Assembly (NCBI RefSeq): GCF_010093815.1
Contig: NW_022985549.1
Location: 3,306,804 to 3,370,803 of the forward strand
Length of the DNA stretch: 64,000 bases
Source: Pseudovirgaria hyperparasitica
Lineage: Eukaryota > Ascomycota > Dothideomycetes > Acrospermales > Acrospermaceae
Direction of reading: 5' to 3'
This document shows, in pieces, positions 38,645-46,985 of the stretch (position 1 is its first letter; each line of letters opens with the position of its first letter). The notes under the pieces were generated by a model that saw only the letters and a program-made list of their open reading frames with translations, was not told the DNA's origin and ran no database searches. The position numbers and the translations under genes are program-made.

Positions 38645-39871
38645 TTAAGCATCAAGATTTACTAGAGGTGGTCTAGCGGGTAACCATTCTAATTTTCCGC
38701 CCCCGATATCATTTAGATTTAGTCCGACACCCGTGGTATATAAGATAGATAGAATACAGTAGAATACTATATAGTATTAGTAGCCGCTGTATATATGCCT
38801 TATAGAACACTTGAAACTTACTAAAACTATTTGTGTTTGTAGATGCGTCGTCGGCTGAAGCCTGCGAGAGTTGCAGAGTATCTTGCCAGTAATCAGTTTG
38901 ATCTTCAGCTATATTAATCTATTAGTATATGTAATATTACTATAGAGTCATCTAAGCTTACTTGGGGGGTACCGTGTCTTTAGTAGTATCTTTAGAAATG
39001 TACAACCTAAAGCCATTTCGATGATATTATCCAATGGAATGTCCTCCGGGTGATAGCCTGTCGCATATTCCTCGGGGCTTACGTTAGAGGGCCTCACGCC
39101 ACGAGGGCCATCCTCGGCATCATATATATTTGGAGGGCGACTGAAAAGATAGTCGGGAGGGTCGGCGTAATTATCCCCACACCATGTGACCAATTTTACA
39201 TGAGACCTTCTTACACGTGGTTCGTCATGAAATATCAGCTCTCGGTGCCAATCATCGCAACGAGGCGGCGGACCTTCCTTTATCGAATAAGATCCGGTTA
39301 TCGGATCAAACCAAAGTTCAACCTCAGAGTCAGAGTCAAAATCAGAGTCAGAGGTGAGTAGTTCATCGGGAACGCGTCCTCCGGAAAAACGTCTTATCTC
39401 CTCAAGGGTGGACGGCCTCCAGCGGTTGGTATCACAAAAGATAATAAGATCTGCTGCATTCCACCTGACCTCTCTTAGTCCGGCGACCTGGCCTAAAACT
39501 CCGAGAACTGCGTTTCGGATTTCGAGATGGCGACTTCTGTCTGGGTCCATATGTTCGGGAACTCTGGCTCGGTATACAGGATCTAATGGACTAAAGATCA
39601 GATTCCATGCCTCCCGAAGGTATTTCGGGGGTCCATCATCTCTTAACATGCTCTTGAAAGCTAGTCTAGCCATCCGTTGGGTCTCGACGAGACTAGGTCG
39701 GTATGTAAAGCGAGTGCATGAGATTGGATCAAAGCCATAAGTTCTAGGTACTTGCGAAGTACGAAAAGAACTAGTAGAAGGAACCCCCGGCCGTGGAACA
39801 CGTACAGCCGCTAGCGAATAAGAAGTAAAGAGTGTTATAAGAAGCGTTCGTAAAAGCATAAGAGAATGCAT
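38645..39871 (-). CDS. Secreted four-cysteine M35-like protein, paralogue A (active site lost)
   Basis: Uncharacterised secreted protein, one of three paralogues here. Three exons, 39871-38962, 38908-38822 and 38766-38645, with introns of 53 and 55 nt, both phase 1 with TACTAATA-type branches, give 372 residues. Without exons 2-3 the frame stops just after the zincin-like helix. The signal peptide is MHSLMLLRTLLITLFTSYSLA. Four cysteines sit in the family pattern: SCTRF, IIFCDTNRW, PPRCDDW, TWCGDN. The segment at the HExxH position reads FLKILLKTRY, so both zinc histidines are Lys. Exon 2 encodes TDYWQDTLQLSQASADDAST, aligning with the post-HExxH helix of the sister copies. Predicted non-catalytic. 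Family placement with M35 is inferred through copy C. Confidence 0.8.
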
Positions 39872-42281
39872 TTTACTTCCAGAGATTGATCATAAAAGCT
39901 CTTTTTTTTTAGCATGAAAGAGCTTACCGCGATGTTATAAAATGCCTGGTAATCAATCAGTTCACCATGTCACTAGAAAACCATCAATCGCGCATGGTTC
40001 GCCTTGGTATTCTATATATATGTATGGATAAGTTTTTCTTAAGTCTGAGCCAGCGTATTAGGTGCGTATTAATAATATATATTAGACAGGAGGAGTGAAT
40101 TGCCCGAGTGGGATCGCTCTAGTCGTGATCAAGGATGTTTGCTATGTACATAGCGTGGACTGCTACTATTCATAGTACCAATACTGTGGATCGGATTCGA
40201 CTTACCCGAAGTCAACGTTAAACGAGGCCCATTCCCTGATTCACATTACCCCACTTTCAATCGCCCTCTTACCTAAGCCAATTGCTAAGATCCGACATTA
40301 ATATCTCTATACTTGCTCTTTGTCTCTTGCTTGTATCTATGTATCTAACCTTTGCTTCCGGAGGGATAGCACGGAAGGCTTGAGGGTCTAACCTCTCCCG
40401 CAATATCGTGTGCAAGACCACCAAGTCCTGGATCATTGGTATGCTAGAAGTGCTAGTCTTCCAACATGGTGATTACGGCCCGCTTCGTTCATCAGTTCAA
40501 CGGCCAGCTTCTTCTACTTACCTCTTGGAATCGAGCTTGGGTATGTCGAGGCCGGAGATATTAATGAGAGAAAGAAACGAACTCTTGTTGACAGCGGGTT
40601 GTGGTGGTAACTAGTGGCTGCGTTTGAATCGAAGTAATATTCTGTATGATGCAATGGGGTGTGCTTAGTAGGCGATATGCATACTAGTCTAATAGTTTAA
40701 TAAAGACTACATTCATCAGCTGTCCTTGGTTACTATAGACCTTACTAATAACTCTTGTTAGCTAACTCCAGAAGCCTAGACTTGGACTCCTACAAACTTA
40801 ATCAAAGCTACATTATCGATGCACTTTTCATTGATCATCATGGAAGCCAAGCTAGAAGAAAGCTTTGGGTTTGAGAGGCTCGAAAATCAGGCGACAGTCT
40901 TTGGCCGGTGTACATCGGTAGATTTACGAACTCTAGAAGATTAGCTTACTAATGCTTTAGACAAAGAGATCGATCATCAAGTCGTAAGCAATGCTTTGAA
41001 ATGAAATGATGTTCTTCTCCCGCCCCCATTTCATTACAATGGAATAAATAGCAATTTAAACATGGGCTTGAGTTTTAACAATCGTGGGCATGTCCGTTGA
41101 CGAAGTAGAGTCTATACCGCGTCACTTGAAGAAGTTAATCAAGGTGCTCATATCCTTCATTGAGGGATTTTCCGTCATTTTGAATTGGGACGGAAGTGAA
41201 CTCACCGGGCCGATTTAGTCGACAGTCGCGGCTTGCCTTCAAACCTCGAAGTCTTTTTACCATGGGTATCCTAGCAGGGCCTGTAGGTATTCTCTCATAA
41301 TCCACTGTCTAGATCCACGTTATCGATGTATTCAAGAGGCGTCCTTTAGAGATCATAGTCGCCTACATTATCTTACATCAAACCTCATTCATACCTATGT
41401 AAAGACTATCTTTGGATAATATCAAATTAAGCTTGTGGAATTCATGGTATATATAGAAGTGACCTAGCTTGATCGCCCCTTCGAGTACGCCCGAAGAGCT
41501 AAGAGTTAGCTCTATACTTCTATAGTATTTATATTCTTATCTTACTCATGTTATTAAACAGTAGATTAGTAAATAAGAGATATATATTAAAAGATAGAGA
41601 GAGGGAGCTCCTTTTAAGCTATGGATCTCTTTCAATGTAAAAATTTCTAGGGATATAAATGTCTGTATATCGTTAAGAGGGACGTCTATTTTACTACTAT
41701 CTTTTGCCTATAACATATGTCTATAACGTTCTTTAGTATTACTCTTAGTACGCGTCTATATATTAGTTCTTCTATCTCTTACTAATGAAATCTTATATTA
41801 ATATATTTCTAATACTAAGATCGAATAAATTCTCTAAATATAATATTATTATTCTAAGAAAAGCTTCTATTAATCGATCTTTTAGTTAAAGAGATAGACT
41901 ATAATATAGGTCTAAATATTATTAAACCTTCTTAAGTATCGTATGTTATCTAGGTAGTTTAGGAAATACTTTTTAGATACAAATACACATATATCTAATA
42001 TTTTCTTTAAGAGAGAGATATTAAATAATTAAGGATTATAGATTTCTAGAAACTTTTAAAAAAGAGGATTAGTACGCGTAAGTAATGTGTTAAGAGTAGT
42101 ACTAAGATATTCATCCTTGCGTGATTTCTAGGTTGTTCCTGAGGTAAATTTTAAGATTTTCACTCAAAGACTAGTATGCCACCATTGTCTACACCTAGAT
42201 AACCTAGACTATTCATGCATCGCTTTCTCTTCTTTATAGCACTCATGTACCTGTCCACTACTACTCCGTTCTAATTCTACA
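39872..42281. other. Gene-poor AT-rich interval with RIP-like composition
   Basis: 2.4 kb with no supported gene. From about 41450 to 42110 the sequence is extremely AT-rich, dominated by TA, AT and TT dinucleotides, with TG and CA rare. This is what RIP of old repeats leaves. No transposon frame survives. Confidence 0.55.
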
Positions 42282-43370
42282 ATGAGAATATTCTCTTCTA
42301 TGCTCCTTTTCGGAGTGTTTTTTACGTCTTCTCTAGCGGCTGGAACTTATGCCTTACATAAAACATGCACTGATGAGTATCCACGTCTACGGTACATACT
42401 CTTAGAAGCTCAGGGTATGGCTCGGTTAGCCACAGAAAGCATAGAAAACTGGGATGAAATGTCGGATGAGCTTAAGCATGGCTTTGAGTTCATTTTCGAG
42501 AGACGAAGTTTTAATGATGGCATCCAAGATGAGGAGAGTAAAGAGGAGGAAAGTCCAGGACCTCGCGTAACCGAAACCCCGCGGATGTTTAGAACAATGG
42601 TATCACAGATTTTTAAACGTGTCGACGATTTTCAGGAAACTGATTGGGAGTCGGGAGAGATTCATATATACTGCAACGAGGATCGATGGAGGGAACTACA
42701 GGACGATGAACAGTACGATGATAGGATAAGGCGACATTTTCCCAATGGCAGCATCCCGGTCAACCTACGCAACTCTAACCGTCTACCTAATGATCGGCTC
42801 TGGATTGATCGTGAGAACGGTTATTGGCACAGGGGTCCACCAGAGTGCTCCCATAGTAGCACCCTTTTTGGAAGATACGAGGACACACCGTCTAGGGGCC
42901 CATACGGGATCACCATAACATGGTGCGCAAAAAATTGGCCCCACGGCCAACGATTTCTCATTGATCTCCTTTTGGAACAGGAAGATTTCTCTACTACTAC
43001 GATTGATAACATACTTTCACAGCATTTAAGTCCTGTGTTCTTATATGGGCTACTACTTACGCCGCGATTTGACCGTAAGTCATGCTTTCCTTCTTTCCAT
43101 TATTCATAGTCCTTCTTCTCATATCCTAGCCGTACTAATAACACATTAGTACGTGAAATGACTGCTGGCTGGGCAGGTAGTAAAAGGTTATCGGCGGAAG
43201 AGGCCCTTATCAATATTGGAAGCCATGGTAGGTTATAGTACTCACTGGGCAAGAGTGTTGACTAATGCATCATAGTATTATTTGGTCTTTTGTCCTTTTT
43301 GAACGAGTTACATGTTTTTATTGATGAAAAGCATGCCAGACTAGGGTATCTAGTGGAAAAACATGATTAG
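42282..43370 (+). CDS. Secreted four-cysteine M35-like protein, paralogue B (active site lost)
   Basis: Second member of the local family. Three exons, 42282-43074, 43150-43227 and 43276-43370, with introns of 75 and 48 nt, both phase 1 and at the same protein positions as in paralogue A, give 321 residues. The signal peptide is MRIFSSMLLFGVFFTSSLAA. Cysteines: KTCTDE, IHIYCNEDRW, PPECSHS, ITWCAKNW. The equivalent of HExxH reads FLYGLLLTPRF, so no zinc ligand remains. Exons 2-3 encode REMTAGWAGSKRLSAEEALI then VLFGLLSFLNELHVF, matching the helices after the active site in paralogue C. Unlike A, it lies on the plus strand. The middle is acidic (EESKEEESPG). Function unknown; a pseudo-protease, possibly an effector, is the best inference. 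Confidence 0.82.
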
Positions 43371-46079
43371 GTTGTATAAGAAGACATGCCGCATGGTTCT
43401 AAAAGTTTATTTAATTCTTAGCCACATAGTAGCATTATTGCTTCCCTAACTTTTCTATTCTCGTAGTGCGAGATTAACAGGGACACCTTTCCTCGCACGT
43501 AGTGTTATGTAGACTTGTAAAACCTAGGTAGACTACGAAACGGGAGTAAAAGAGGCACCTAGACGTGATATACCTACGTGAGCCCCAAAGCTTACATATA
43601 GAAATCCTGGTCAAGTGATAAATCTAGGCCATAAGTATGTTGAATATGCCTAGAGATTATTCTAGAAGGGATCTGGTTAGGATGCATACGAAACTACACA
43701 TAGGCAGTTAATCATACAAGTGCTGTAAACCGTGAACGGAGAACGCTTTCTGTCGTAGAGCAAGAGACTAATTATTACGTGAGAGTGTCACACAGACCAG
43801 AGCTCATAAGGGTCTGGATGAAAGCAAGCTTGCAAAATACACTTTCAGCTTTGTTGGATACATCTTACGGTGCATAAAGTACAGGTGGTCATTGCCGGCG
43901 TCTGGGTGGTCTGAGAAGTAAAGGTAATTAACCGCCGTTCCGAAATTGGGAGGTTGCGCACTTTTTCAAGCATCCATCATGCGATCGCCAATTTAGATGT
44001 CACCCTCCTCTTTTTACGCTCATAATTTCACTTTCTCCAATGTGCTAATTTGAATACGACCTGCGACCAGCCTATTGATATTTACAATCGATAGCAGAAC
44101 AACTGTGCATCATGCACGCCTATCTACGGAACGATTCAAGGAAGTGACGACAATGCTGCTTAACGGAGAGGCCGTGCCCATGATTTGTGTCCGAGTTCGA
44201 TAATGTAAAGCCCGATGAACTAAAAATAAAGGTGGAAGTACGAAGACACCCCACTGGTTGAGCGAGAGCCGTGCTGTGCAGGAGCGAGAACTTATCAGAA
44301 CGGTCCAATCACATCCGTGAAATCCTGTCATATTCACAGTCGCCTTGCGAAGGGATGATCACTCTGGAGTGAAAGTAGCAGCGCTGACGTTGACCCTGCA
44401 CCGCTCTACTAAGTCTACTCTGTTGAGCGAGTAACGTCACTCCGGAGCAACGCTCTTTTCGTTCCTTGTCTAACACTTTAAGGATCACAGCTGTGGACAA
44501 AGACGGCAGCACCGAGAAAGTTTCAGGCAGTTTAGACCAAGGCATGGCTACTAATAAGAGATGCACAATGCCAATTTCCCCGATAGATTCAGACGAGTTC
44601 TACATAACCACGACATACAGCGAGCTCTGGGGAGACAGGCCCAAGCCCTGACGTCTCCCCGATTCGCTCTGGTCGGAACAAATGTTAGAGGACAACAGGA
44701 ACAATACAAGGACCCGACGACAGAAGCTAGACGTCGGCACTCAGTACGTTCACATCATTCCAGAAGGCTGAGCCGCGGAGCTGGGGTACAGGTATGTTTC
44801 AGCCAATAACAAGAAGGGCCACACAACTACGGTAAGCTGTCTTATGCTAAACTCATCTGCTTGGGTAGAAATGATGCGTTGTTCCATGGCTAGAGTTAAG
44901 GAACATATGTATTAGCAGGGACTGAACATATACAAATCTAGGGATTGATGACAGCTAATACTACGATGCAACACAAAAGGCTGTCCTTATCCTTTTTACT
45001 TAATTAGGCACGCCTGCCATCTGTTATGAGTATCTAGACCTCGACTATGATGGTTCCGTGGAATTACACAACGCATAGAAGAGACAGGCGCATGATCTGG
45101 TCACGGGCTTAAAATTGATTCTGATGCATCTTTCGCAGCATGCTCAAATGGCATAGTATAACTCACTCTGAGAGTCGTATCGAGATACAAAGGTCTTAAT
45201 AGATTATATGACTTGTAGCATAGAGCGATCTTGCTTCTGTGTGTCTAGAGTCAGGTGGGAGTCCTGCAAATCTTGAATCAGCGCAATCTACTGGTGACTC
45301 TGTTGGGACTGCTGATGGTGTCAACCACGGTTGTATGATCTATTTCCATGATCTATCTCTATGATATAATAGTAGTTATAAAGAGCATCATAACTTGATA
45401 CGGAGACTTGAAGTACCCCTGCTGGAGTCTTAAGCTTGGTCTGTATGTTGCCCCCATGGGATAGCTGATAGGTACGGAGTTAGGTGTGCATTAGGCTGGG
45501 TACCGTAGTACTTGCGGCACCGGCATCAAATATGTGCCTGAAAAGCTGTGGCGGATCAAAGTAGAAGTTGATATTCACGTTACATATAGATAAGAAGGGT
45601 CCTAATGACCCATCGTCGCCCAAAGAGGTGTTTTTCGAAGATAAATGACGTCGAACGGATCGTCTAATCTGCGGCTGAATCGTGTTCATGATAGCCTACT
45701 TGCACGTTTTGAAAACCTTTTGACACAGTTTCATCACGCCCACTTCTCCGCCGCGTGAGAATCGATTGGGTCTATGCATAATGTAAAGTCGCTGTACAGG
45801 ATATACGTGGCTACGTCCATGGGTTTATCCCACTCTTTCTCGTTTTGGAAGCATTAACGATAGATGTTTGTCGGAGTCGGCTGGTCAAGTGTAGGTAAAA
45901 TGCTTAGACGTGGTATCGAAGAAGGTCAGGGTCGAGACGATGACGACAGGCCCGTGGCTGGACATGCGTACATCCAAGTATCCGGTGTGGCTCTGCATAA
46001 GTTGAACAGGGCGTGCTGGATGTTGTGGAGCCGACTGCTCTAGTGACTGCCCAGTATCCGTAGTTTTCCTAGAACCTGA
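43371..46079. other. Gene-poor interval, no supported gene
   Basis: 2.7 kb between paralogues B and C. Short frames at 44110, 44466, 44561 and 45480 show neither the IYC-x-x-x-RW motif nor a signal peptide, so I do not see relics of a further family member, though I could not search exhaustively. Confidence 0.45.
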
Positions 46080-46985
46080 CTATCTTGGGGGGTTTCCCGT
46101 TTCGGCAACTAATCGTGGTCCATCTCTCCCGGACATTATACCCTTTCCTTGATCTCTCTCACGAGTACTCAATACATATCCATACTCGTATAATAGTACT
46201 ATCGCGCCGAAGTATGCAGAGCTATCCGCATTTGAAATCGCCTCGGCACTTGTTTTCTCAACGATATGTTTCCACCCAAACGCCGGCTCTATGTTTTGTA
46301 AAAGAAACGGGCGTGTATGTAGTATATCGTGGAGTAGAGCATAGCTAAGAAAGGCTACGATAAAGTCTATCGGAAACTTATTACCTAGATTCCCAGTCCC
46401 TGTCATACCCATGTACTGCACAATAGAAGACTGCCGTCTCGGATTAGGGGGACATAACGTAATAGCTGCCCGGTTTCGGGGCGTACGGAACGGGGCTTGG
46501 TGGTGAAGACGTATGTATGTATTTCCTCTTCTTCCGTCACGACAGGTCGGTCGGCCTCGAGTCTCCAAGTGGCTCTCCGGATCTACCCATAAGTCTCTGT
46601 CCGGAGAGTCCGGCTGTGGCCTCCAACGCTCCTCGTTATCACAGTAGATATGCAAGTCTGCTTCATCGAAGGCTTTAGGTCTCATCCTTCCTATATCTTC
46701 CATTATAGATCCTATTCGGTTTCTTGTCTCTATGGTGTTGTCCTTATAGATAGCTGTAAATGAGCGGGCAAGGTCTTCGTTGAGGCCACGAATATCTCGT
46801 AGATGTTGTGCGCTTAATGTGGCCATGCGTATAGCCTCAGTCATCCCAACTACCACTTGTTGAGTTTCTTCTTTTCGGTTCGGTTGCTGGCATGATGAAT
46901 GAAAAGCGTACGAATTGGCTGCGAAAGCCTTAAGCGGGAGTAATGCCCCGTATAATAACGTTGGTACCGTAAGAAGTAAGAGCAT
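46080..46985 (-). CDS. Secreted four-cysteine M35-like protein, paralogue C (HDILH variant)
   Basis: Third and most protease-like member, 301 residues, a single exon from ATG 46985 to TAG 46080. The signal peptide is MLLLLTVPTLLYGALLPLKA. Cysteines: HSSCQQ, LHIYCDNEERW, RPTCRDG, ITLCPPN. The zincin-like helix reads ALLHDILHTRPF: both histidines of HExxH are present but the catalytic Glu is Asp. Downstream, AEAISNADSSAYFGAIV resembles the NADSY-x-x-F segment of M35 peptidases, but the aspzincin GTxxDxxYG box is not recognisable (NIEPAFGW stands there). Activity is therefore doubtful. It lacks both introns found in A and B, so the introns were lost here or gained in the A/B ancestor. Confidence 0.82.
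   Translation of the reverse strand: MLLLLTVPTLLYGALLPLKAFAANSYAFHSSCQQPNRKEETQQVVVGMTEAIRMATLSAQHLRDIRGLNEDLARSFTAIYKDNTIETRNRIGSIMEDIGRMRPKAFDEADLHIYCDNEERWRPQPDSPDRDLWVDPESHLETRGRPTCRDGRRGNTYIRLHHQAPFRTPRNRAAITLCPPNPRRQSSIVQYMGMTGTGNLGNKFPIDFIVAFLSYALLHDILHTRPFLLQNIEPAFGWKHIVEKTSAEAISNADSSAYFGAIVLLYEYGYVLSTRERDQGKGIMSGRDGPRLVAETGNPPR

What the first reader, a model, noticed from the sequence alone, without database searches (positions are those of the whole stretch)
38645..46985. Local family of three secreted M35-like proteins with eroded active sites
Three genes at 38.6, 42.3 and 46.1 kb share a signal peptide, four cysteines in equal order around a conserved I-[IH]-[IF]-[YF]-C-x(3,4)-R-W motif, and a C-terminal helix set. 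At the HExxH position the copies read HDILH, YGLLL and KILLK. Copy C also has NADSSAYF, like the NADSY segment of M35 peptidases. The sequence shows the homology and the lost residues; a non-catalytic role (binder, inhibitor or effector) is inference.
Basis: partly seen in the sequence, partly recalled or inferred. Interest (0 to 1): 0.78.

Follow-up and report, generated by a model that had tools for sequence, protein, structure and literature searches.

The report
Dead secreted proteases in a mycoparasite
Three neighbouring genes in the fungus Pseudovirgaria hyperparasitica encode apparently secreted proteins related to a zinc-cutting protease but without its cutting site, and they belong to a large, so far hidden family spread through the same genome.

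The parts
38645..39871 (-). copy A, whole gene (3 exons, 372 aa), M35-like protein, KILLK at the HExxH column
   Evidence: closest relative among the 29 modelled is L010 (C2:694476), 44% identity
38962..39871 (-). copy A exon 1 (N-terminus to just past the former HExxH helix)
38909..38961 (-). copy A intron 1 (GTAAGC...TAG)
38822..38908 (-). copy A exon 2 (DYWQDTLQLSQASADDASTNTNSF, counterpart of YGWxNVxxKxxxDALxNADSYA)
38767..38821 (-). copy A intron 2 (GTAAGT...TAG)
38648..38766 (-). copy A exon 3 (C-terminal helix and tail)
38978..38992 (-). KILLK, at the column that is HExxH in 11 of 29 relatives
42282..43370 (+). copy B, whole gene (3 exons, 321 aa), YGLLL at the HExxH column
42282..43074 (+). 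copy B exon 1; modelled by AlphaFold2 (pLDDT 85.1), aligned to deuterolysin residues 1-138
43075..43149 (+). copy B intron 1 (GTAAGT...TAG)
43150..43227 (+). copy B exon 2 (REMTAGWAGSKRLSAEEALINIGSH)
43228..43275 (+). copy B intron 2 (GTAGGT...TAG)
43276..43367 (+). copy B exon 3
43044..43058 (+). YGLLL at the HExxH column
46080..46985 (-). copy C, single exon (301 aa), deuterolysin fold in the predicted model
46317..46331 (-). HDILH: both zinc-ligand His kept, catalytic Glu position holds Asp
46293..46295 (-). Asn231, eight residues after the second His; 10 of 11 intact relatives have Asp here (candidate third zinc ligand)
46209..46232 (-). NADSSAYF segment, shared with M35

Best explanation
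The three genes encode secreted, probably disulphide-stabilised proteins with the M35 (deuterolysin, aspzincin) fold. They come from a lineage-specific family of some 40 loci in Pseudovirgaria hyperparasitica. A and B belong to a clade in which both zinc-ligand His and the catalytic Glu have been replaced in every member modelled, so the loss probably came before the clade radiated. The helix that carried HExxH is now lined with Ile, Met and Leu, the two former His positions are among the most variable sites, and new aromatic residues flank the fourth cysteine. They are therefore pseudoproteases that keep the scaffold and diversify its surface. I propose that they act outside the cell as binders (of host proteins, inhibitors or proteases) in the interaction with the rust or plant host, while intact paralogues may still cut. 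C is an independent loss that keeps two His; it could still hold a metal, Pra1-like, but is probably not a working protease. Shown: homology, loss of residues, predicted fold of C and in part of B, repeated change on the tree, open frames. Inferred: secretion (by eye), disulphides, folding of A, direction of change, binding function and target.
Against: The eroded clade compared directly with canonical M35 is not significant (probability 5.4, 28 columns), so its M35 ancestry rests on intact paralogues and on structure. None of the three proteins hits any Pfam model at E <= 10. Foldseek's 21 listed matches for B exon 1 hold no M35 structure; the match came from the second-look aligner. The B model drew on an alignment holding intact paralogues and lacks exons 2-3; A was not modelled. 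A versus L010 has omega 0.76, not significantly below 1 (2dlnL 2.9), so constraint there rests on the open frame and the scaffold, not on omega. In the ten-member clade the C-terminal models of L016 and L019 are poor, without the conserved segment, and L017 was taken without its first exon. No expression, secretion, binding or activity data. Whether other fungi have the family is poorly tested.
Confidence: 0.6

Rival explanations
1. Copy C (and possibly other copies that keep His residues) is a zinc-binding, non-cutting protein of zincophore type, working like Pra1 by holding zinc outside the cell.
Against: Pra1 has a third His ligand, which C lacks (Asn at +8); C matches no HRXXH model, and the genome has a separate Pra1-like gene at C20:413037. 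A and B have no His at either position.
Confidence: 0.17
2. The copies are decaying pseudogenes of an expanded protease family, on the way to loss and without function.
For: Omega of A versus L010 is not distinguishable from 1. Three of 42 family loci carry several in-frame stops, one of them in a stretch with a strong RIP-like signature; a few further matches show one stop at or outside the modelled exons. L013, L020 and L058 have frames that look incomplete, and the C-terminal models of L016 and L019 are poor.
Against: Open exon-1 frames and invariant Cys and Trp in the ten members of the clade (L017 without its first exon); 0 of 2000 neutral runs without stops; clade-specific conserved aromatics.
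Confidence: 0.13
3. C is still a working peptidase with Asp as general base and a shifted ligand set.
For: Both His kept; a Glu (E233) lies two residues past the +8 position (NIEPAFGW).
Against: Two of the four M35 catalytic residues are changed in C, counting the +8 position. All 139 M35 proteins of 79 Dothideomycetes in a published survey keep three ligands and the Glu (PMC12924839, section 14).
Confidence: 0.06
4. The three are unrelated small secreted proteins that resemble M35 by chance.
For: No Pfam or NCBIfam match for the three and no PDB-sequence match for C of note.
Against: Structure, profile comparison, shared intron positions and intact paralogues.
Confidence: 0.02

Closest known systems
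M35 deuterolysin / peptidyl-Lys metallopeptidase (aspzincins; Pfam PF02102, PF14521; structures 1EB6, 1G12)
   Same: Predicted fold of copy C over 172 of 177 residues of 1EB6; YG and NADSY segments; HExxH plus a downstream Asp in the intact paralogues.
   Different: A, B and C lack the complete catalytic set. In the profile alignment the first ~170 residues of the canonical proteins have no counterpart and the stretch between the second and fourth Cys is longer. The three fall below the family models.
Pra1 / Asp f 2 zincophore family (PF13933 HRXXH; 9N47)
   Different: Pra1 has three His ligands. A and B have none at these positions, C has two. The genome's own PF13933 gene lies elsewhere (C20:413037).
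Secreted M35 virulence factors of fungi (VdM35-1 and, from search listings only, FocM35_1, MrM35-4)
   Same: M35 proteins secreted by parasitic fungi (PMC9769895 passages; listing).
   Different: VdM35-1 has HEXXH and its cell-death effect is reported to depend on the two His (PMC9769895). In A and B these His are gone.
Pseudometallopeptidases in general (reviewed in PMC11266112)
   Same: Inactive homologues kept for binding roles (abstract start and passages).
   Different: M35 and deuterolysin do not occur in its main text (0 and 0). Ecm14 (M14) is the fungal case in the passages.

Membership tests
M35 active peptidase | HExxH with two zinc His and catalytic Glu | tested here: not met
   KILLK, YGLLL, HDILH at the aligned column; 11 of 29 modelled members meet it
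M35 active peptidase | third zinc ligand Asp downstream (GTxDxxYG) | tested here: not met
   C has Asn, B has Glu at +8; A has Asp at +8 but no His. No GTxDxxYG in the stretches printed there
M35 fold (non-catalytic member) | deuterolysin fold | tested here: met
M35 fold (non-catalytic member) | score over PF14521 or PF02102 cut-off | tested here: not met
   0 families at E <= 10 for A, B, C; paralogue C15:616438 scores 31.0 over the PF14521 cut-off of 30
M35 fold (non-catalytic member) | descent from M35 shown by sequence | tested here: met
   transitively: eroded-intact E 1.8e-40, intact-canonical E 1.8e-8; the direct comparison of the eroded clade is not significant
Pra1 / HRXXH zincophore | HRXXH family profile | tested here: not met
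   no Pfam hit; one separate family member in the genome
Pra1 / HRXXH zincophore | binds zinc without proteolysis | not testable with these tools
   needs purified protein
secreted effector | signal peptide and secretion | tested here: inconclusive
   hydrophobic N-terminus by eye; no predictor run
secreted effector | expression during parasitism and effect on the host | not testable with these tools
   no RNA or phenotype data here

The most novel reading that the evidence does not exclude
A parasite of rust fungi has turned a protease family that elsewhere numbers a few genes into some 40 secreted proteins. It switched off the catalytic site at least four to six times, and one switched-off lineage went on to radiate as a new kind of effector scaffold, a pseudo-aspzincin used against another fungus.
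Probability: 0.4. Interest if true: 0.78.

Novelty: new variant of a known kind. Interest (0 to 1): 0.64.

Why it matters
A survey by PF02102 would count three M35 genes here and call the genome ordinary. In 79 Dothideomycetes the published maximum is seven, and all 139 proteins keep their catalytic residues (PMC12924839). A hidden family more than ten times larger, with repeated loss of catalysis and a radiated inactive clade, would be a clear case of an enzyme fold turned into an interaction scaffold in a fungus that attacks fungi. Intact and inactive paralogues stand side by side in one genome, so when, how often and to what effect catalysis is dropped can be tested directly.

Tried and rejected
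Single-protein searches with copy C against 5.8 billion proteins (1488 candidates, none at E <= 10) and against the PDB by sequence (one match, E 2.1, unrelated), and all three against NCBIfam, gave nothing. A profile search with 22 members found one protein at E <= 0.1, from this same species; only 7997 word-sharing candidates were scored, so it does not show that the family is confined to it. The same profile against the PDB puts deuterolysin 1EB6 first, but only at E 0.023. Subtelomeric placement was tested and not supported: 11 of 40 loci lie within 150 kb of a contig end, 7.4 expected, 202 of 2000 random draws reach it; the two loci on contig 5 were left out because its length was not known.

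Omega as a clean test of constraint failed for A/L010 (0.76, not below 1). It gave 0.40-0.66 for three other pairs in which both members have lost HExxH (L032-L031, L035-L037, L016-L019) and 0.29 for one intact pair (L030-L034); the other two pairs of intact members and C-L005 came out near or past saturation. The contrast between lost and intact pairs is therefore only suggestive. Direct profile comparison of the eroded clade with canonical M35 failed.

Rows dropped or shortened: of 32 members read, three (L013, L020, L058) were left out of the tree and the counts because the frame in hand was incomplete; L020 shows HELTH in its model and L058 SMFLD in a second frame. Of the 29 used, L003 was cut by me to the M35-like part, L017 and L033 lack their N-termini, and L032 was cut at residue 330. 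Rows of alignment A1 for intron-bearing members run some residues into intron 1. Seven further loci with open frames were never read (C4:1042169, C7:493978, C12:1436866, C12:835288, C1:1336420, C1:608941, C5:467309), and three loci with several in-frame stops were not translated through.

Literature: the listings of searches for deuterolysin, M35, effector and zincin, pseudoprotease, pseudoenzyme, catalytically inactive deuterolysin, effector structure clusters with zincin, rust hyperparasites and Pseudovirgaria (11 papers) showed no title or abstract start reporting this family; supplements were not read and subscription journals are mostly not held.
Full report
What was given. A finding of three neighbouring genes with M35-like features and degenerate HExxH motifs. 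All three open frames are there, and the shared Cys, Trp and signal-like N-termini are real. The gene models used here have three exons in A and B and one in C. The splice choice for A and B was made with a profile built from six relatives that read through in one frame (C itself, L003-L007); 0 of 150 shuffles of the downstream DNA matched the gain in either gene. The end of exon 3 of one relative (L015) agrees with a deposited protein (P0001, EJ05DRAFT_500416), although that record skips exon 2.

Where it is. The window lies at G000:C1:3306804-3370803 of a 35.03-Mb genome in 59 contigs. P0001 and P0002 are named as proteins of Pseudovirgaria hyperparasitica, and their longest contigs (1656338 and 839468 bases) have exactly the lengths of contigs 8 and 19 of this genome. 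NCBI places it in Dothideomycetes, Acrospermales. That it parasitises rust fungi is taken from its name and from recall. One metatranscriptome paper reports a pectin-degrading transcript of it only in rust-diseased crabapple samples (PMC12542627, passages).

How large the family is. Searches with copies A, B, C and five relatives give 42 distinct loci with E <= 1e-3 in at least one of them, counted by me by place, on 14 contigs; two of these (C4:1400063, C2:1319263) reach that level only as queries that find other members. The tool calls such counts lower bounds. Three of the 42 have several in-frame stops in the match (C1:3380626, C5:506818, C11:108075); a few more matches show one stop at or outside the modelled exons. 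PF02102 passes its cut-off at three other genes, the canonical M35 genes. PF14521 passes at the same three, at C15:616438 (a relative of copy C, 31.0 bits, cut-off 30) and, with its neighbours, at C8:250232, and finds further relatives of C below the cut-off, through the YG...NADSY part. PF13933 (Pra1) finds one separate gene. In a published survey of 79 Dothideomycetes, M35 genes number 0 to 7 per genome, and all 139 keep the three ligands and the Glu (PMC12924839; abstract, sections 7 and 14 and passages). That survey required PF02102, so it would hardly have counted this family, and its main text does not name Pseudovirgaria.

Active site. I read 32 of the 42 loci; 29 gave usable models, three of them without the N-terminus. 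Eleven have HE[LF]xH, and ten of these have Asp eight residues after the second His; the eleventh (L034) has a different loop with an Asp further on. The other 18 have lost HExxH in many ways: REMIR, HELMR, HELTA, HTLLH, TQLTQ, IQFLR, YQLLL, HDILH, and the ten of the A/B clade, none with His. Only copy A among the 18 has Asp at +8. That the +8 Asp is the third ligand is inference from spacing (+11 in 1EB6, counted by me on the alignment; +9 in the Grifola enzyme, recalled).

Tree. With the five motif residues masked, a maximum-likelihood tree of the 29 proteins needs six changes between intact and lost; four are forced by well-supported branches, and none of 200 bootstrap trees needs only one. 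Parsimony does not give direction; loss is inferred because the intact state equals that of canonical M35. One placement with six losses is: the clade with A and B (with L038), C, L031/L032, L006, L035/L037 and L040. End branches are long (median 0.98), L006 very long, and 10 of 26 inner branches are open.

The inactive clade. A, B, L010, L011, L014-L019 form one group (98/99). In it the catalytic Glu column is Ile or Met in 9 of 10 and Gly in one. The two His columns rank 255 and 237 of 260 (1 = most conserved), while two Leu columns beside them rank 14. Cys1-4, Trp, Glu50 and Asp135 (numbers of copy C) are invariant in 10 of 10. The residue before Cys4 is Trp or Phe in 10 of 10 and in 0 of 19 others; Trp four after Cys4 occurs in 7 of 10 and 0 of 19. 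So the zinc site has gone from among the most constrained places to nearly the least, while the scaffold stayed and new conserved aromatics appeared. This is what a protein with a new, non-catalytic role would show. Relaxation alone explains the variable His columns but not the new conserved ones. Against this, the C-terminal part of L016 and L019 could not be modelled well.

Constraint. At 0.3 random substitutions per site, 0 of 2000 runs of A, of L010 and of B stayed free of stops (means of 8.0 to 8.8 stops). Pairwise codon fits give omega 0.76 for A-L010 (not distinct from 1), 0.66 for L016-L019, 0.54 for L035-L037 and 0.40 for L032-L031, all pairs in which both members have lost HExxH. The one intact pair clear of saturation, L030-L034, gives 0.29; L008-L030 (0.07), L003-L004 and C-L005 (0.07) are near or past it. 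This is only a hint of faster change in inactive pairs.

Profile comparison. Eleven intact paralogues against 22 canonical M35 proteins: hhalign probability 95.4, E 1.8e-8, with HExxH and the NAD segment aligned. Ten eroded against eleven intact: probability 100, E 1.8e-40. Eroded against canonical: probability 5.4 over 28 columns, not significant (set size). The link of A and B to M35 is therefore through their paralogues.

How it probably works. Secreted through a signal peptide (by eye), held by the conserved Cys, folded like deuterolysin, without the means to cut. The most likely use is binding through the diversified face around the old cleft, against host proteases, inhibitors or surface proteins, in a fungus that lives on other fungi. 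C may be a partial case that still holds a metal. Precedent for an M35-type fold kept without catalysis exists in Pra1 (PMC12663325, passages). In contrast, cell death by VdM35-1, which has HEXXH, is reported to need its two His (PMC9769895, passages), so A and B should not act in that way.

Limits. No expression, secretion or biochemical data; A not modelled; other species barely tested; the host role is a proposal.

Noticed in passing
41501-42000: AT-rich island (25% GC, TpA/ApT 1.32) just upstream of copy B, with the look of a RIP-hit repeat relic.
   Followed up: partly
L002 (G000:C1:3380626-3381480): A 39% identical relative of copy C about 28 kb further along the contig carries 9 TAG and 4 TAA in frame, in a stretch with a strong RIP-like signature (TpA/ApT 1.3-1.8). 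Described only.
   Followed up: partly
L003 (G000:C15:578212 region): This intact (HELMH) paralogue, a 515-aa frame, has some 20 APSLQNPE/APSLQSPE-type units over about 160 residues between the N-terminus and the M35-like domain.
   Followed up: no
L017, L016 and L019 (G000:C11:687193-691104): A second tight cluster: three inactive members within 4 kb, on the same strand.
   Followed up: partly
L015 (G000:C8:247464-248186) and P0001: The deposited protein for this locus joins exon 1 to exon 3 and skips the exon 2 that relatives suggest; copy C itself was not found in the protein database, so the family may be poorly annotated.
   Followed up: partly
G000:C20:413037-413842: The genome's single Pra1/Asp f 2-like (PF13933) gene, matched in two pieces, separate from this family.
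   Followed up: partly
L025 (G000:C8:250232): Another M35-like gene with HELTH and NADSLALFA about 2 kb from L015 (30.2 bits to PF14521 with its neighbours); not placed on the tree.
   Followed up: no
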